This document shows, piece by piece, positions 293 through 19,644 of a stretch of DNA of 64,000 nucleotides. The first letter of the stretch is position 1; every line of letters begins with the position of its first letter. The notes under the pieces were generated by a model. That model was not told where the DNA came from and did no database searches. It saw nothing but the letters and a program-made list of their open reading frames with translations. The stretch comes from Gordonia pseudamarae (lineage in GTDB: Bacteria > Actinomycetota > Actinomycetes > Mycobacteriales > Mycobacteriaceae): assembly GCF_025273675.1 (NCBI RefSeq), contig NZ_CP045809.1, positions 2,914,001 through 2,978,000 of the forward strand, in the 5' to 3' direction. The translations under genes were made by a program, and so were the position numbers.

Positions 293-3075
293 ACCGAGTC
301 CTCCCCCTGTGTGTCCTCTCCCCGGGCACCCTCGTGTCCGGTCGCGACGGCCTCGGCGAGTACCTTCGCGGTTTCGCGCACCAATGGCGGGCGCAGCATC
401 GAATGATGGTCTCCCGATACCCGCACCACGATCGGCCCACCGGCCACCAGCCGGTCCCAGGTGGCGGCGTCACCGGAGTTGGCGTCGGCCATCACCACCA
501 CCGCAGAACCCGGGTACACGGCGGGCCTGTGACGCTTGATCTGCTGCCTGCCCAGGTCCCAGAACACCGTCCACTGCACGGCCGTCGGCAGGCGCACGAG
601 ACCAGCGGTGGCCACCAGCGCACTCATGAGCGCCCGGTTCCACAGGATCGACACCCGTTCACGCGGTCCCGGCGGCTCGCGGTCGGCCTCGCCCGTACCG
701 GTGCGGTCCGGCAGCGCCTCCCGCTCCGGGGCCGTAGCGGCCGGATCGACCGCCCCGCCGGTCACCCGTGCGAGGAGTTCGGGTTCGAAGATCGGGTCCA
801 GCAGTACCACTGATTCACACTCGGCGCCGCGCCCGGCAAGGATCGTGGCCGCCTCAAGCATGACGAAGCCGCCATAGGAATAGCCGCACAGCCGATAGGG
901 TCCGGCGGGCTCCACGGCCAGGATGTCGCGCACCGCCCGCCGGGCCGCGGCCCGGATGGACCGGTCGGCCCGGCCTCGGCGCTCGAGTCCGTGCGCCTGC
1001 AGCCCGTACACCGGATAGTCCCCGGCGAGCTCACGAACCAGCGGCAGCAGCCCGGCCGCCGGACTGCCCGCACCCGCCGCGATGAACAGCGGACGTCCCG
1101 TGCCCGAACGCAGGCGGGTGATCGATCCGACGCCTTCGGTGCGGGCGCGGGTCTCGCTGGCGGCGTCCAGGAGCGCGCCCAGTGCCGCGATCGTCGGTTC
1201 GGCGGCGAAATCCGCGGTGGCGATCTCGACCAGCCAGCGATCGGCGACCCGCCGCAGCATAGTGGCCGCCGCCAGCGAGTCACCGCCGAGGGCCACGAAA
1301 TCCTCGTTGCGGCCGACCACGTCGAGGGCCAGGATCTCCTGCCACAGGTTGGCCAGATCGGCCTCGGTCAGCCCGCGCACCGGCTCAGGCACACGCTCGG
1401 GCGGCGGCGGCAGTGCGGCCCTGTCGACCTTGCCTCGTTCGTTGCGCGGCAGTTCGGCCAGCACCACCACATCGCGGGGAATCATCCAGGGCGGCACCGT
1501 CTTCGACATTTCGGTACGAATCTCGGCCGGCGACGGCGACCACAGGTCGGGATCGACGGCCACGTGGGCGACGAGCGTGTGTGCCGAGCGGTCGGCGGTC
1601 ACCACCGCATCCGCCGTCCACGGCAGTGCCCGGATGGCCACCTCCACCTCGATCGGCTCGACGAGATAGCCCCGGATCTTGACCGCGTCGTCCTTACGGC
1701 CGAGCAGATGCAGCCGCCCCTCGTCGTCTAACCTGCCCAGGTCACCGGTTCGGTAGCGCCGTCGTCCGGCACCGAGGTCGGTGAACCGGGCGGCGGTGAG
1801 TTCGGGTGCGCCGTGGTAGCCGAGGGCGATGTGAGCCGATTCGATGACCACCTCCCCCGCGGACCCGGCGGGCAGATCAGCGCCGTCCTCGCCGACGATC
1901 CGCACATGCTTGTCCGAAGCGGGGGTGCCCACCGCGATGACACCCGGAGGATGGGCGCGGTTCGCGGGCAAACGGTTGAACGCCAGATTTCCGGTCTCCG
2001 AGGACCCCGACCAACTGCAGAACACGCCGCCGGGCATGAGATGGGCGCGTACTCGGTCGACGTCGCCGCTGTGCACCGGTTCACCACAGGTCGTCAGCAA
2101 CCGCACGGAGTCGACGGCGCGCATCGCGCCCGGATCGGCCTGGTCCGCGGATGTGTCCGCGCGGGCGTCGGGCAGCCAGGACCGCAGCAGCGAGGGGGTG
2201 CAGTGCACCGTGGTGGCCTGTTGCTCGTCGAGCCAGTCGCGCAGACCGTCGACACCTCGCCGGCGCACGTCCCACAACAGCAGCCGCGCCCCGTTCAGCA
2301 AGGTCATCATCACGCAGTCGAATCCGGCGCCGAAGCTCAGCGGCAGCAGTGTCGCCGCGCTGTCGTCGGGTCCCAGACCCAGGAACACGCGGCCGTCGGT
2401 GGCCTGATTGACCCAGAAGCGCTGCGCGTGGACGACACCTTTGGGTTCGCCGGTGGAACCGGAGGTGAAGATGAGCGTGGCGGGGTCATCGGGCCCGATG
2501 TCCACCGGTAGTTCGATCCCGGTGCTGTCCGGGTGATCTGTGTCTTCCGGGTGACCTGTGTGTTCCGGGTGACCTGTGTGTTCCGGGTGACCTGTGTTGT
2601 TCGGGGATGCTGTGTCGTTCGGGGGTGCTGTGTCGTTCTGGAGTAGCGGGGCACGCAGGTCGTCGGCGGTGAGCAGGTGGGCGCCCGACAGCGCGAGGAT
2701 GCGCTCACGCCGGGCCTCGGGCAGGAACGGATCTAGGACGATCACCGGATGTCCCGAACAGAGGACGGCGAGCACGGACAACACCGAATCCACATCGGAC
2801 TCGACATCGATCGCGACCGGCCGGGATCTCTCGGGTACCGCCGCCGCGATCAGACCCGCTCGTCTGTCGGCGACGGTCAGCGCACCGCAGAAGGTCACCG
2901 ATTCGTCCGGTGTGCGCACCGCGATCTCGTCCGCGCGCCGGGCGGCCACCGCCCGCCAGATCTGCGCCGCGGTGACATCTCCTGCGCCAGCATGATCTTC
3001 GTACATAAATCCTGAACCGGACATTGTGGGTCGGGTGTCATCACCGGCACGGCGTGTACTCATCACCATCACCAC
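289..3075 (-). CDS. Stand-alone NRPS-like enzyme: adenylation-PCP-thioesterase
   Basis: 928 codons with three domains in order. Adenylation (about 35-540) has the P-loop LIFTSGSTGEPKG (201-213), YRTGDLGRLDDEGR, GRKDDAVKIRGY and PRNERGKVDR with the catalytic A10 lysine. A peptidyl carrier follows (LGGDSL, phosphopantetheine serine), then a type I thioesterase with nucleophile motif GYSYGG. No condensation domain is present, so the enzyme should load one acyl or amino acid and release or transfer it. The A5 region reads SWSGSSETGN rather than the usual YGPTE, so the substrate cannot be predicted. A low-complexity hexapeptide repeat interrupts the A domain before the P-loop. The start is uncertain (MVMVM run). 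The first codon abuts the mycolyltransferase stop, and the stop overlaps the glycosyltransferase start, so it is the middle gene of a coupled operon, perhaps for an envelope lipid or glycolipid (inference). Confidence 0.85.
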   Translation of the reverse strand: MVMVMSTRRAGDDTRPTMSGSGFMYEDHAGAGDVTAAQIWRAVAARRADEIAVRTPDESVTFCGALTVADRRAGLIAAAVPERSRPVAIDVESDVDSVLSVLAVLCSGHPVIVLDPFLPEARRERILALSGAHLLTADDLRAPLLQNDTAPPNDTASPNNTGHPEHTGHPEHTGHPEDTDHPDSTGIELPVDIGPDDPATLIFTSGSTGEPKGVVHAQRFWVNQATDGRVFLGLGPDDSAATLLPLSFGAGFDCVMMTLLNGARLLLWDVRRRGVDGLRDWLDEQQATTVHCTPSLLRSWLPDARADTSADQADPGAMRAVDSVRLLTTCGEPVHSGDVDRVRAHLMPGGVFCSWSGSSETGNLAFNRLPANRAHPPGVIAVGTPASDKHVRIVGEDGADLPAGSAGEVVIESAHIALGYHGAPELTAARFTDLGAGRRRYRTGDLGRLDDEGRLHLLGRKDDAVKIRGYLVEPIEVEVAIRALPWTADAVVTADRSAHTLVAHVAVDPDLWSPSPAEIRTEMSKTVPPWMIPRDVVVLAELPRNERGKVDRAALPPPPERVPEPVRGLTEADLANLWQEILALDVVGRNEDFVALGGDSLAAATMLRRVADRWLVEIATADFAAEPTIAALGALLDAASETRARTEGVGSITRLRSGTGRPLFIAAGAGSPAAGLLPLVRELAGDYPVYGLQAHGLERRGRADRSIRAAARRAVRDILAVEPAGPYRLCGYSYGGFVMLEAATILAGRGAECESVVLLDPIFEPELLARVTGGAVDPAATAPEREALPDRTGTGEADREPPGPRERVSILWNRALMSALVATAGLVRLPTAVQWTVFWDLGRQQIKRHRPAVYPGSAVVVMADANSGDAATWDRLVAGGPIVVRVSGDHHSMLRPPLVRETAKVLAEAVATGHEGARGEDTQGEDSV
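2518..2637 (-). repeat. Coding 18-bp minisatellite in the NRPS-like gene
   Basis: About 6.5 imperfect 18-bp units encode hexapeptides such as NDTAPP, NDTASP, NNTGHP, EHTGHP (twice), EDTDHP and DSTG (residues 147-186). The array lies in a loop between the N-terminal subdomain and the P-loop of the adenylation domain. Units nearest the P-loop are the most alike at DNA level (ccgggtgacctgtgtgtt), which suggests recent slippage. The unit length keeps frame. Confidence 0.85.
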
Positions 3076-4146
3076 TCAGCGACGCAGAGCCGCGGCGACA
3101 GTGGGCCACGACCGGTGCAATTCGTCCTGCCAGTAACGCCACGAGTGGGTGCCGCTGTCCGAGAGATGGACGGTCGCCGGAATCCCCAACTGCCTGAGTC
3201 TGGCGGCCATCGCCGAGGTGCAGTTGTGCGCCGCCGCCTCCAGTAAGCCGCCGACCACCACCTGTTCGCCGAGCGAGGGCGCACCCGGCGCCTGCAAACC
3301 CGGCTTGTCGTACCGCCCGGCCGTCCCCGTGCCACTGGACAGGTACAGCGACAGGCCACGTAGCTTGTGCGCGTTGACATACGGGTCGTACTTCGTCCAC
3401 AGCGGTGATCCGAACGGCCCCCACATGTTGTCGGTGTTGGCCTTGTTGGCCATGTACACGGTGCCGCGTACCGCCGAGTATCCGTCGAGGGTGCTGGTGC
3501 GCGCGCAACCGCTGTAGGCGGCCACACCCTGATACAGCGCGGGCGCGGCGATCGCCAGATTCAGCACGGAAGTGGCCGACATCGACATGCCGCCGATGGC
3601 ATTGACGCCGTTGGTGCGCAGGGAGGTGTTGACCGCGCGCGGCAGTTCCCGGGTCAGGAATGTCTGCCACATCGGCTGCCCGATCACCGGGTCTCGGCGG
3701 ATCCAGTCGGTGTAGTAGGTGCCGATGCCCTTCTGCGGGATGACCACGTTGACCCGCTTGTCGGCGAAGAGCTTCAGGATGTCGGTCTGGGCCAGCCAGT
3801 TGGCCCCGTCCTCGCCGCCGCCGGCACCGTTGAGCAGATAAAACGTGGGCGCACCGGCGGGGGTGCCCGCCGGCCGGATGATACTCAGCGGAATCTCGGC
3901 GTCCATCGCCGCCGAATACGCGGTGGCCTGCCACAGGTTGTCGCCGATGTGGGTGAGCGAGTGCAGCCGTCCGTCATCGCTTCCGGGCACGGCATGGTTT
4001 CGGGGTGCGGCGTCGCTGCGGGGGTCGGCCGTGGCGGGTGAGGAGACGAACACCGACAGGGTGAGCAGAGCGGTGAGCACTCCGGCCAGGACCGCGGTCG
4101 GCCGACGGACGGCACGTGCGGTGGACCGCACTACAGGCAACAGCAT
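3076..4146 (-). CDS. Secreted mycolyltransferase / antigen-85-like esterase
   Basis: 356 residues with a Sec signal peptide (basic N-terminus, a hydrophobic stretch LAGVLTALLTLSVFV, then SPATADP). The body is an alpha/beta-hydrolase of the antigen 85/corynomycolyltransferase family: YLLNGAGGGEDGANWL, IPQKGIGTYYTDW, a nucleophile elbow GGMSMSATSVLNLA and a C-terminal HSWRYWQDEL bearing the histidine. Such enzymes transfer mycolates between trehalose monomycolate and arabinogalactan or trehalose outside the membrane. The canonical Ag85 elbow is GLSMSG-like; GMSMSA fits the corynebacterial/Gordonia branch. It is the first gene of the operon with the NRPS-like enzyme (zero spacing). A candidate DtxR/IdeR box ends 3 bp upstream of the ATG, and a TAGGCT hexamer there would suit a leaderless transcript. 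Confidence 0.88.
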   Translation of the reverse strand: MLLPVVRSTARAVRRPTAVLAGVLTALLTLSVFVSSPATADPRSDAAPRNHAVPGSDDGRLHSLTHIGDNLWQATAYSAAMDAEIPLSIIRPAGTPAGAPTFYLLNGAGGGEDGANWLAQTDILKLFADKRVNVVIPQKGIGTYYTDWIRRDPVIGQPMWQTFLTRELPRAVNTSLRTNGVNAIGGMSMSATSVLNLAIAAPALYQGVAAYSGCARTSTLDGYSAVRGTVYMANKANTDNMWGPFGSPLWTKYDPYVNAHKLRGLSLYLSSGTGTAGRYDKPGLQAPGAPSLGEQVVVGGLLEAAAHNCTSAMAARLRQLGIPATVHLSDSGTHSWRYWQDELHRSWPTVAAALRR

Positions 4147-15599: not shown

Positions 15600-16400
15600 G
15601 TGCTACAACACCGACCGAACTCCCCCGCCGCCATCCCGGACGCGAAGATCCTCCCGGCCGACCTGCTGCTCTGCGGCGCCTCGTCGAGCGGCCGCCGGGC
15701 CGGACAGCACCGCGCCGCCAAGAACTCGTCGGCGTCCGCGACCACCGTCGCCGGCGCGACCGTGGCACTGGCCGGAGCGATCGGGCTGGCCGCGGGCGGT
15801 GCGGCACAGGCGGCCGCACATCCGTCGACCCCGACGACCGACTACAAGACGGACCCCGCGCTGTCGACACTCCGATCGCTGGCCACACTGCCGGGCGTGG
15901 AGGATCTGACGGCCCACGCGCAAGACCTGGCCACCCACGCGGATCTGTCGGCCTCGATCGACAAGGCCCTGCAGGACCTGCTGCCCCGGAAGCTCCCGAC
16001 TCCCCACAAGCACACCGCAGTGCGGCCCGTCCACGGCACGGTGACCTCCGGCTACGGCGCCCGCTGGGGCGTCCAGCACTACGGCGTCGACATCGCCAAC
16101 GAGATCGGCACGCCGGTCTACGCGGTCACCGACGGCACCGTCCTCGAATCCGGTCCCGCCTCCGGCTTCGGCCAGTGGGTACGGGTCCAGCAGGACGACG
16201 GCACCATCGGGGTCTTCGGCCATGTCGACCAGAGCTTCGTGACGGCGGGCCAGGAGGTCAAGGCCGGCGAACAGATCGCGACCGTCGGCAACCGCGGACA
16301 GTCCACCGGCCCGCACCTGCACTACGAGGTCTGGGACAAGGACGGCACCAAGATCAACCCGCAGGTGTGGCTCAAGAATCGCGGCGTCGACATCGAATAG
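15600..16400 (+). CDS. M23-family peptidoglycan metallopeptidase
   Basis: 266 residues from a GTG start. A polar N-terminus (about 45 residues) precedes a hydrophobic segment ATTVAGATVALAGAIGLAAGG (49-69) ending in AQAAAHP, a signal peptide or anchor. After a linker, the C-terminal LytM/M23 domain (about 140-266) has PVHGTVTSGYGARWG, zinc motif HYGVDIAN (H and D), VFGHVDQSFV and the second zinc motif GPHLHYEVW (HxH). All four zinc and catalytic residues are present, so it is probably an active endopeptidase cutting peptidoglycan cross-bridges outside the membrane. The start is uncertain, with no strong ribosome-binding site. Monocistronic; it converges on the DUF429-RelA/SpoT gene. Confidence 0.85.
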   Translation: MLQHRPNSPAAIPDAKILPADLLLCGASSSGRRAGQHRAAKNSSASATTVAGATVALAGAIGLAAGGAAQAAAHPSTPTTDYKTDPALSTLRSLATLPGVEDLTAHAQDLATHADLSASIDKALQDLLPRKLPTPHKHTAVRPVHGTVTSGYGARWGVQHYGVDIANEIGTPVYAVTDGTVLESGPASGFGQWVRVQQDDGTIGVFGHVDQSFVTAGQEVKAGEQIATVGNRGQSTGPHLHYEVWDKDGTKINPQVWLKNRGVDIE

Positions 16401-16652
16401 CCCCGCCCGACAACAAGACCTCTCGGATTCGGTCCACAAGACCCCTTCGGTCGCGGACACCGTTGGCTACGAGCCGCTACTCGGCGGCGGACTGATCACC
16501 ACGCTGCCGTACCGATCATCGCGGCGGTCGGACTGGCGCTGTTCACCGTCTTCTCGGTGATCTCGGTCGCCGCGATCGGCGTGTGGGACATCCGGTGCAC
16601 ACCATCGGCCGCCTGATCAGCCGCACGGCTCCCCGGCCCGGCCGGTCCGCGA

Positions 16653-18374
16653 TCAGCTGTCGGATCCGCTCAGCTTCACCAATCGGTTCTCCAACAAGAG
16701 GATTCGGTGCGCGTTGCCGTCCAACCGGACGTACCGGTCGCCGAATGCGGCCAGGAGCGCATCGTCGAGACGGCGCACCGCACCCGCGGGATAGCGGTAA
16801 CCCATCGCCGCGTCGACGGCGTCGGTGTCGACCCCGGCCAGCTCCCCTTCCAGCGCCTCCAGCGAATCGATTCCCAGATCGAGCAGCAGCCCGGAGATCC
16901 AGGCGTAATGGTCGGTACGTGACCAACCCGCGTCGGGAAACCGGGTACCCAGATACGTTGCCAGCACCGGGGTCGGGATCCGCGGGTCGTCGGTGACCTC
17001 GATGCCCGGCTCGGACGGTTCGGCCGACAGCAACCGCTCCCGGATCGCCGAGAACTCCCGGTCGGCGAGTTCCAGCAGGCCCGCCGCCAACGCGAAACGC
17101 CGGTTGAGGTCGGGCGCGTCGTCCTCGGACACCGACCCCTTGTAGCGAATGTCGTGTTCGAACTCGGCCCACGCGTGCTGCAGGATCGTCCGCACCTGTA
17201 CCGACGCCGGAAGCTGCTCGCCTTCGAGCGCAACCAGCAGGTGCCGGCTCGCATACCCCCAACGACCCTCGCTCGCCGTTTGCTGCCCCATGTCACGATC
17301 ATCGAGAAGCCGCATCTCGTCGGCGAGAAGATTGGCGACGACGGCGACATCGTCGTACAGGTAGGTGATGACCCGGACACCGATCTGATCGGTGATCTCC
17401 GACAGCGGATCGGTGTACACGTGCCGGCCGTCGACGTGCCGGTCAGCCTTACCCGCGAAGGACGCAACGGTTTTGGTGCGACCGGACACCGTCACATAGT
17501 TGATGCCGGCGTCGTCGAGCAGGTTGATCAACCTGGCCAGGTAGCGCGCCGTCGACTGTTCCAGCGCCGGCCGACGCTCGGTGTAGGCCACGACCGCATC
17601 GGCGATCGCACCCGGGGTGGTCTCCGCCGGTGCGGGCAACAGATCGTGCGGCAAGGTCGGGGTGAGGATATAGCCGGTCTCGAAGTCGCCGTAGATGGTC
17701 ACGTCATCGGGTCTGCGCGTGGCCAGGAGCGCCACATACGCGCAGACAACCGCATCCACCGGATCCTCGGCGCGCCGCAGGTCACTCTTGCGCCGCGCGG
17801 ATTCGACAGTCTCCCGCAGTTGCGACCAGTCCTCGCAATCACTCACCCGCAGCGGCGGATTCGCATGAGCGAGGGCCTCGACGTGCTCGATCAGCCGTAA
17901 CAGCTCGGCCCGCAGCTGTGAGAAACTCCGACCGGTCTTCGCCTTGTATTTCAGGGTTCGTCCGAGGCGGAACAGCACCACCGTCGCCGGATGCGGGTAG
18001 ACCTCGATCGCACGCCTGGCCGCTGTCGACTCCGGATCCGGGTCCAGACCGAGAGACTCGGCGATGGCCGCCGCGCGAGGAATACCGGCGAACTCCTTCT
18101 TGCCGGTATTGGACGGATGCGCGCCGGCCTGAAATCTGCCGAAATCGACATTGAGTCGCCGCTCCGCCTCACGCTGCCCCTTGGGGTTGACGACGATCAG
18201 CGGCGCGTCGATGGCGACCAGGCAGTCACCGGCGACATACGGTTCCACGGCCTTTCGGATACTCGCGTCATCACCGGCCGTGGTCGCGGACACCAGCGAC
18301 CCGGCGTCGTCGACGATCGCGACACCTGTGGGCTTGCGCTGCCCCCACGCCAGGTCGAGTCCGACAAAATACAC
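16653..18374 (-). CDS. DUF429 (RNase H-like) fused to a RelA/SpoT (p)ppGpp-synthetase-like domain
   Basis: 573 residues. Residues 1-245 are a DUF429 domain, a predicted nuclease of the RNase H fold: GLDLAW (D7), AIDAPL (D56), EVYPHPA (E124) and DPVDAVVCAYVALL (D204/D207) give the expected acidic set. Residues about 275-415 match a small-alarmone-synthetase domain: SGRTKTVASFAGKADR (R299, K301, S305, K309), ITDQIGVRV (D329, R334), GYASRH (373-378), then VQVRT (392-396) and AEFEHDIRYKG. No HD hydrolase, TGS or ACT domain is present. In RelQ-type enzymes a catalytic glutamate stands directly before the [VI]Q[VI]RT motif; here it is S391, so synthesis may be lost or altered. The last 155 residues form a helical C-terminal region. 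GTG start, monocistronic. Mycobacterial MS_RHII-RSD joins RNase HII to the same type of domain, so this looks like an independent RNase H-alarmone pairing (inference). Confidence 0.85.
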   Translation of the reverse strand: MYFVGLDLAWGQRKPTGVAIVDDAGSLVSATTAGDDASIRKAVEPYVAGDCLVAIDAPLIVVNPKGQREAERRLNVDFGRFQAGAHPSNTGKKEFAGIPRAAAIAESLGLDPDPESTAARRAIEVYPHPATVVLFRLGRTLKYKAKTGRSFSQLRAELLRLIEHVEALAHANPPLRVSDCEDWSQLRETVESARRKSDLRRAEDPVDAVVCAYVALLATRRPDDVTIYGDFETGYILTPTLPHDLLPAPAETTPGAIADAVVAYTERRPALEQSTARYLARLINLLDDAGINYVTVSGRTKTVASFAGKADRHVDGRHVYTDPLSEITDQIGVRVITYLYDDVAVVANLLADEMRLLDDRDMGQQTASEGRWGYASRHLLVALEGEQLPASVQVRTILQHAWAEFEHDIRYKGSVSEDDAPDLNRRFALAAGLLELADREFSAIRERLLSAEPSEPGIEVTDDPRIPTPVLATYLGTRFPDAGWSRTDHYAWISGLLLDLGIDSLEALEGELAGVDTDAVDAAMGYRYPAGAVRRLDDALLAAFGDRYVRLDGNAHRILLLENRLVKLSGSDS

Positions 18375-18618
18375 GCGTACAACTATGCCTTACCGCGCCG
18401 TGTCCCCTGTGCCACGTCCTCCCCGCCGCGATCGGCGTATACCTGTTCGTCGACGTCGTGTCGACCGCGGCCGGCGGCCCCACACTGCCGATGGGTTCGC
18501 CGGTCCTGAAGTGACCGGTGCTCCCGGTGCGCCGACCGAATGAATTCCGTTCGGGCGGCGTGACCGGGAGCGCCGCCTCTGCTGGGATGGGACGCAGCCG
18601 CCGGACGAAGGACCAGCA

Positions 18619-19644
18619 ATGCCAACCCATCTGCTACGTCTCACCCTCGCGTTTCTCTTCGCGATTCCGGGACTGCTGATCGCATCACCGGCGGCGGCGT
18701 GCGCCTGCGGCGCGATCGCCAGCAACGACGCCGCCGCTCAGGTCAACCGGGAGACGGCGATCGTGTCGAAGACCGGAAACCGTGAAACCATCGACATGCG
18801 GCTGTCGATGCGATCGGTGCGATCGGACGCCGCGCTGATCGTCCCCACACCGACACCCGCCACCGTATCGGCCGGCGATGGCGCACTGTTCGACGACTAC
18901 GAGAAGATCAGCGCGCCCCGCACCGAAACCCGACGGCACTGGTGGTCGCGGTCGACCGACGACGACGGTGCCACCGCCGGTGCCCGGGCGCCCGCGAGTG
19001 CCGCCGGAGCCGCCGATCCGCAGGTCGTCGCCCGCGTCCGGCTCGGCCCCCTCGACATCACCACACTCACCGGCGGCGACCTGGACGGCCTGCGGAAATG
19101 GTTGTCGGACAACGGCTACCAACTCAAGCCCGCCGTGATCTCGGCATTGGCACCGTATGTGGCCGAACGGTGGTCGTTCGTGGCCATCGCACTGACCTCC
19201 CCCACCGCGCTGTCCGGGCCGCTGGACCCGATCCGCATGGAGTTCGACACCGATCAGCTCGTGTACCCGATGCGGATGTCGGCCGCGGCCACCGGAACCC
19301 AGACGGTCGACCTGTACGTGCTCGCCGATCACCGCCAGGACCGGACCGACGCCGACACCGCGCGGCAACAGGTGCGCACCCTGTACTCCGGTCGACTCGC
19401 CGACGGCCGGCACCTCACCACGGTCCGGACGACAGTCACCGCTCCGCAATCTATTTCGTCCGATTTCGTGTTCGCCACGGCCGCCGATGATTCGCCCTAC
19501 CGGCGGGTCGTGTACACAGACTCCGACGTCACCATCGCGGGCATGATGGCCGGGCCGTTCCTGCTCGTCGTCGGCGTGATCGTGCTTGTCGTCGTGGTGG
19601 CGGGTGTCGCTGTTGCCGTGGGTCGGCGGCGGATCGACGGGTGA
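18619..19644 (+). CDS. DUF2330 membrane-anchored secreted protein
   Basis: 341 residues. A signal peptide (LLRLTLAFLFAIPGLLIASPAAA) is followed at once by CACGAI, the cysteine pair typical of DUF2330 proteins. The extracellular part has IVSKTGNRETIDMRLSMRS and ALIVPTPTPATV, common to the family, and a Ser/Ala-rich insert after RHWWSRSTDDD. A C-terminal helix (AGPFLLVVGVIVLVVVVAGVA) with a basic RRR end anchors it in the membrane. The start is supported by gaaggac 7 bases upstream. Function unknown. Transcribed away from the DUF429-RelA/SpoT gene across a 244-bp region that must hold both promoters. Confidence 0.8.
   Translation: MPTHLLRLTLAFLFAIPGLLIASPAAACACGAIASNDAAAQVNRETAIVSKTGNRETIDMRLSMRSVRSDAALIVPTPTPATVSAGDGALFDDYEKISAPRTETRRHWWSRSTDDDGATAGARAPASAAGAADPQVVARVRLGPLDITTLTGGDLDGLRKWLSDNGYQLKPAVISALAPYVAERWSFVAIALTSPTALSGPLDPIRMEFDTDQLVYPMRMSAAATGTQTVDLYVLADHRQDRTDADTARQQVRTLYSGRLADGRHLTTVRTTVTAPQSISSDFVFATAADDSPYRRVVYTDSDVTIAGMMAGPFLLVVGVIVLVVVVAGVAVAVGRRRIDG

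What the first reader, a model, noticed from the sequence alone, without database searches (positions are those of the whole stretch)
16653..18374. RNase H-like DUF429 domain fused to a RelA/SpoT synthetase domain that lacks its catalytic glutamate
The protein joins a predicted nuclease (D7, D56, E124, D204/D207) to a small-alarmone-synthetase fold with intact RxK, DxxGxR and GY...RH motifs. The glutamate expected just before [VI]Q[VI]RT, essential in RelQ-type enzymes, is S391. Mycobacterial MS_RHII-RSD couples RNase HII to (p)ppGpp synthesis; a different RNase H-like family in the same arrangement suggests a convergent link between nucleic-acid processing and nucleotide signalling. It may make another product, act as a toxin-type pyrophosphokinase held by its own nuclease domain, or only bind nucleotides.
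Basis: partly seen in the sequence, partly recalled or inferred. Interest (0 to 1): 0.8.

Follow-up and report, generated by a model that had tools for sequence, protein, structure and literature searches.

The report
RelZ enzyme missing its usual glutamate
This gene encodes RelZ, an already known fusion of a nuclease-fold domain and an alarmone-synthetase domain; it was likely gained from a mycobacterium, and because its missing "catalytic" glutamate is absent from every close relative examined, the enzyme would probably still work rather than be broken.

Summary
In detail: window 18374→16653 (minus strand) encodes a 573-aa protein with DUF429 (5-230) and RelA_SpoT (298-413), and residue 391, Glu in RelQ-type enzymes, is Ser. 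The reading as a convergent arrangement does not hold: it is an ortholog of mycobacterial RelZ (MS_RHII-RSD), whose "RNase HII" domain is itself DUF429.

Beyond the finding: (1) residue 391 is Ser, Gln or Ala in 432 of 432 non-identical sequences (window included), never Glu, while the other synthetase motifs are invariant or nearly so; 51 of 51 more distant synthetases examined keep Glu. It is a clade trait, not an error. (2) Of 59 held genomes of the genus only the window's own has relZ; in two others its slot holds a different gene, and the protein falls in a mycobacterial clade: probable horizontal gain. (3) DUF429 models as a RuvC-like fold; residues ~466-570 form a third, helical domain without a recognised match. 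(4) Many mycobacteria carry only the DUF429 half, in six of seven checked loci at the relZ place.

Published RelZ makes pGpp/ppGpp and cleaves RNA:DNA hybrids; the same is inferred, not shown, here.

The parts
16653..18374 (-). relZ-type gene, 573 aa (GTG start)
17685..18362 (-). DUF429 domain (residues 5-230), RNase H-like fold of RuvC type; D7, D56, E124, D204 in 312 of 312 and D207 in 311 of 312 sequences that hold the domain
17136..17483 (-). RelA_SpoT synthetase domain (residues 298-413)
17202..17204 (-). codon TCG of Ser391, where RelQ-type enzymes have the glutamate
17373..17390 (-). DxxGxR motif, D329-R334, the metal-binding Asp kept (432 of 432)
17472..17480 (-). RxK motif, R299-K301 (each 431 of 432)
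17241..17258 (-). GY..RH motif, G373-H378
16665..16979 (-). third, C-terminal helical domain (about residues 466-570), no Pfam match and no close solved structure found
15600..16400 (+). left neighbour, M23 peptidase: left edge of the variable slot
18619..19644 (+). right neighbour, DUF2330 protein: right edge of the variable slot

Best explanation
This gene encodes a RelZ-type (MS_RHII-RSD-type) protein, probably gained from a mycobacterium, whose DUF429 half (nuclease fold) is predicted to cut the RNA of RNA:DNA hybrids and whose synthetase half, which lacks the RelQ-type glutamate as do all 431 close relatives examined, would likely still make pGpp and ppGpp. Shown here: both domains, grouping with the mycobacterial fusion, conservation of the other synthetase motifs, clade-wide absence of Glu, absence of the fusion from the other 58 held genomes of the genus. 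Taken from reviews of M. smegmatis RelZ: use of GMP>GDP>GTP, hydrolysis of RNA:DNA hybrids and R-loops, inhibition by single-stranded RNA and pppGpp. Inferred and untested: that this copy does the same; that D329 with water and perhaps Ser391 fills the Mg2+ shell that the glutamate completes elsewhere; that the nuclease clears R-loops while the alarmone half acts on stalled transcription, as proposed for RelZ.
For: The best 120 of 3356 homologs all carry both Pfam domains over 97-100% of the query, many named bifunctional ribonuclease/(p)ppGpp synthase of Mycobacterium/Mycolicibacterium. The synthetase tree puts the window protein inside a 33-row clade (SH-aLRT 99) whose rows with a species name are Mycobacterium/Mycolicibacterium. 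M. gilvum and M. vanbaalenii, species listed with RelZ orthologs in PMC7591505, both carry Ser here (P0344 and L001, another isolate). R299, K301, D329, R334, Y374, R377, H378, Q393, R395, E406, H407 in 431 or 432 of 432. RelZ activities: PMC7591505, PMC8622095, PMC10112252. Fold of both halves.
Against: No activity was measured for this protein. The sequence of M. smegmatis RelZ itself was not obtained, so Ser in the assayed enzyme is inferred from its relatives. The Glu is described as Mg-binding or catalytic in RelP and Rel. Many mycobacteria lack the synthetase half, so it is dispensable there. Reviews say that the isolated domains are inactive, which fits badly with DUF429-only orthologs being common. 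Horizontal gain is not proven: loss in the other genomes of the genus is not excluded.
Confidence: 0.78

Rival explanations
1. The synthetase half is a pseudoenzyme that only binds nucleotides and regulates the nuclease.
For: Glu absent in 432 of 432; the half is missing from many mycobacterial orthologs.
Against: The remaining catalytic motifs are invariant or nearly so across several actinobacterial families, which a dead site would not need; published activity of M. smegmatis RelZ.
Confidence: 0.12
2. The loss of Glu changed substrate use: the clade is specialised for GMP (pGpp) or for another acceptor rather than for GDP/GTP. This refines the best explanation and does not exclude it.
For: RelZ is described as the only SAS with higher affinity for GMP than for GDP/GTP (PMC10112252 passage); 51 of 51 more distant synthetase loci examined keep Glu; in FaRel2 the matching Glu145 contacts the adenine of ATP (PMC11782079 passage).
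Against: One characterised enzyme only; in the structures described the glutamate lies at the ATP/Mg side, not at the guanine pocket.
Confidence: 0.3
3. A toxin-type pyrophosphokinase held by its own nuclease domain, or an anti-phage system.
For: PADLOC candidates: the DUF429 half matches PDC-S44 at E 1.8e-83 and the synthetase half PDC-S33 at E 1.8e-06.
Against: No partner gene on the same strand beside it and no defence gene recognised among eight neighbours: M23 peptidase, DUF2330, EutB, an ANTAR response regulator and others (one search gave matches to SduA, mad3/mad8 and Csa3 profiles, which I judge to be generic receiver, ABC and MarR-type cross-matches). One chromosomal DUF429-only ortholog tested hits PDC-S44 as strongly (L262, E 2.8e-85); in mycobacteria the neighbourhood is conserved in most loci compared.
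Confidence: 0.05
4. Convergent fusion of another RNase H-like family to a synthetase.
For: None found.
Against: Same Pfam domains, order and tree position as mycobacterial RelZ.
Confidence: 0.01

Closest known systems
RelZ / MS_RHII-RSD (MSMEG_5849) of Mycobacterium smegmatis and its mycobacterial orthologs
   Same: DUF429 plus RelA_SpoT in one chain of about 575 aa; about 59-76% identity to named mycobacterial copies, 79% to the best, unnamed hit; inside their clade
   Different: Lies outside Mycobacterium in another chromosomal place; no activity data; the M. smegmatis sequence was not compared directly
actRel / RelS of Corynebacterium glutamicum
   Same: Same actinobacterial SAS group by the literature (PMC5566576 section 12); matches in genomes of corynebacterial size run through the synthetase and the C-terminal helical part
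   Different: No DUF429; the copies examined in such genomes keep the glutamate; C. glutamicum RelS itself was not fetched
RelP (YwaC) and RelQ (YjbM)
   Different: Glu (E174 in S. aureus RelP) where this clade has S/Q/A; no DUF429; no C-terminal helical domain
RuvC-like RNase H-fold proteins (clade D of PMC3985635: RuvC, RuvX, Ydc2, DUF429)
   Different: Sequence identity 7-13% in those rows; the published activity of RelZ is RNase HII-like; a shared fold shows no function

Membership tests
RelZ | DUF429 N-terminal plus RelA_SpoT C-terminal in one chain | tested here: met
RelZ | grouping with the mycobacterial fusion in a tree | tested here: met
   clade of 33 rows, SH-aLRT 99 (quick method); nearest rows with a species name M. 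vanbaalenii and M. hippocampi
RelZ | pGpp/ppGpp synthesis with GMP>GDP>GTP | not testable with these tools
   needs an enzyme assay; literature only
RelZ | RNA:DNA hybrid and R-loop cleavage | not testable with these tools
   literature only
RelZ | same residue at position 391 in M. smegmatis RelZ itself | not tested
   its sequence was not obtained; M. gilvum, M. vanbaalenii, M. fortuitum and M. peregrinum copies have Ser
RelQ (YjbM equivalog) | NCBIfam GTPPhKinYjbM curated score | tested here: not met
   54.4 bits against a cut-off of 320
RelP/RelQ | Glu before [VI]Q[VI]RT | tested here: not met
   Ser391; 0 Glu of 432
RNase HII (RnhB) | match to an RNase HII profile | tested here: not met
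   only DUF429 and RelA_SpoT listed up to E 1 in Pfam
RNase HII (RnhB) | RNase HII fold as nearest fold | tested here: inconclusive
   not among the 50 rows shown; RuvC-type proteins are
RuvC-like RNase H fold | fold match and conserved acidic residues | tested here: met
   D7, D56, D204 in 312 of 312 and D207 in 311 of 312; which of them are catalytic in RuvC is recalled
toxSAS toxin-antitoxin | adjacent antitoxin in a bicistronic unit | tested here: not met
   the genes on both sides, M23 peptidase and DUF2330, lie on the opposite strand
PDC-S44 defence candidate | PADLOC profile match | tested here: met
   E 1.8e-83; also E 2.8e-85 for one chromosomal DUF429-only ortholog
PDC-S44 defence candidate | defence activity | not testable with these tools
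   no defence gene recognised among eight neighbours, which does not settle it

The most novel reading that the evidence does not exclude
RelZ and its stand-alone sisters are a separate class of alarmone synthetases that dropped the Mg-shell glutamate once, work without it, and became pGpp makers through that loss; the nuclease half is an independent RuvC-type R-loop enzyme that many mycobacteria kept after deleting the alarmone half.
Probability: 0.3. Interest if true: 0.6.

Novelty: new member of a known kind. Interest (0 to 1): 0.36.

Why it matters
The fusion itself is known. What is useful is that a residue treated as catalytic in RelP, RelQ and Rel is absent from a whole clade to which a biochemically active enzyme is assigned, so either the residue is not essential to the chemistry or the clade has found a substitute; both can be tested with purified proteins. 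It also corrects the picture of the nuclease half (RuvC-type fold, often kept alone) and adds a lone copy outside Mycobacterium, probably gained by transfer.

Tried and rejected

Papers: PMC7591505, text parts 1-3 of 6 read. PMC5566576, passages and section 12. PMC3153485, PMC4429107, PMC3985635, PMC5794853, PMC7983052, PMC11782079, PMC12691689, PMC8622095, PMC10112252: passages only. The primary RelZ papers (Murdeshwar and Chatterji 2012; Krishnan 2016; Petchiappan 2020) were not read; the first is not held, the others I did not ask for. That I found no description of the clade-wide loss of Glu rests on searches (listings) in an open-licence library only.

Full report

What family it is. The 120 best of 3356 homologs all carry both domains, many named bifunctional ribonuclease/(p)ppGpp synthase of Mycobacterium (one of the 120 is the window's own protein). 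The literature describes this fusion: DUF429 in front of actRel in M. smegmatis, M. gilvum and M. vanbaalenii (PMC3153485); MSMEG_5849 with RNase HII activity 'through domain Duf429' (PMC4429107); RelZ making pGpp, ppGpp and pppGpp with GMP>GDP>GTP, hydrolysing RNA:DNA hybrids and R-loops, both domains needed in one chain (PMC7591505). The finding is therefore a RelZ ortholog, not a convergent arrangement.

The missing glutamate. I pooled the listed hits of three protein searches (each lists the best 120 of 2691 to 3582, so this is the near part of the family) with 80 of 466 genome loci: 442 sequences, 432 after removal of identical ones (near-copies remain; the window's own is one of the 432). 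Residue 391 is S in 395, Q in 33, A in 4, E in none. In 109 of the 432 the DUF429 stretch is lacking; some of these look like complete stand-alone proteins, some are fragments. The 30 loci of genus g29 returned all have Ser (29 by pattern, L248 read). Outside this clade the picture is the reverse. Of 78 weaker rows of the family-wide search I examined 51 loci: a pattern that leaves the position open gives Glu in 51 of 51; pairwise alignment had given Glu in 45 and had slipped in 6. On a 91-row synthetase tree built without column 391, Glu versus not-Glu needs one change (quick method, support of that split 87, several long outgroup branches, so the point of change is only roughly placed). In RelP the residue (E174) completes the Mg2+ shell through water together with D107 (PMC7983052, PMC5794853); in FaRel2 the matching E145 contacts the adenine of ATP (PMC11782079). 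The Asp is kept here (D329, 432 of 432). I infer that the clade runs the reaction with a changed Mg/ATP site. That RelZ is described as the only SAS preferring GMP (PMC10112252) makes a link to the lost Glu attractive, but it rests on one enzyme, whose own sequence I did not obtain.

Where it came from. Of 59 held genomes of the window's genus only the window's own has the two-domain protein; 7 others have weaker synthetase matches only, E 2.7e-24 to 3.2e-4. In 401 genomes of the family, 19 hold a synthetase at 65% identity or more: the window's and 18 of genus g29. None of 9 window neighbours is found in the flanks (up to 6 kb, some cut) of the 80 relZ loci at E 1e-15 and 40% coverage. In two other genomes of the genus the same block (binding protein, ANTAR response regulator, M23 peptidase, then DUF2330) is present with something else between M23 and DUF2330: a 188-codon putative secreted ORF in G004, a 313-codon putative secreted, perhaps lipase-like ORF in G045 (both names are from the look of the sequence). 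The tree places the protein among mycobacterial sequences. GC of relZ (0.661) is like its six neighbours measured (0.636-0.708), so composition does not help. Horizontal gain into a variable slot is the simplest account; loss elsewhere in the genus is not excluded and the donor is not identified.

The two halves part company in mycobacteria. In 396 genomes of the g29 genus, 314 match at E<=1e-50; I counted 122 rows that reach into both domains (two of them cut short), and by subtraction 192 genomes have weaker matches. The 28 of these that were listed cover residues 1 to about 250 only, at most 269. Of 7 such loci taken with flanks none holds the synthetase, and 6 have the neighbouring ORFs of the fused locus L001 (6 to 14 shared ORF pairs, shadow frames included; L264 has none but itself). 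In a DUF429 tree with 27 of the 28, 25 form one clade (99) and 2 changes suffice. Loss of the synthetase half at the relZ locus is the likeliest reading. It sits uneasily with the report that isolated domains are inactive.

Verdict. Observation confirmed; interpretation corrected; a new member of a known kind, with a clade-wide active-site change that deserves an assay.

Noticed in passing
L262, L263, L265-L268 (against L001, L002, L270, L271): DUF429-only orthologs at the relZ locus of many mycobacteria, most ending just after the linker: the synthetase half appears to have been lost.
   Followed up: partly
window 17640-18374; L262: The DUF429 half matches the PADLOC phage-defence candidate PDC-S44 very strongly (E 1.8e-83), as does a chromosomal DUF429-only ortholog; that profile may be catching a housekeeping family.
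   Followed up: partly
window 16665-16979: Unannotated C-terminal helical domain that seems shared with actRel/RelS-type synthetases.
   Followed up: partly
window 16400-18619; L160, L161: Variable slot between the M23 peptidase and DUF2330 genes: three genomes, three different inserts.
   Followed up: partly
L082 and L081 (own genome, C1:368146-368511 and C1:2347081-2347410): The genome also has a RelQ-like 250-aa synthetase with ELQIRT and a long Rel with EVQIRT, both with the Glu.
   Followed up: no
window 15726-15750 and 18275-18299: A 25-nt inverted repeat (80%) with one arm in the M23 gene and one inside relZ; possibly chance.
   Followed up: no
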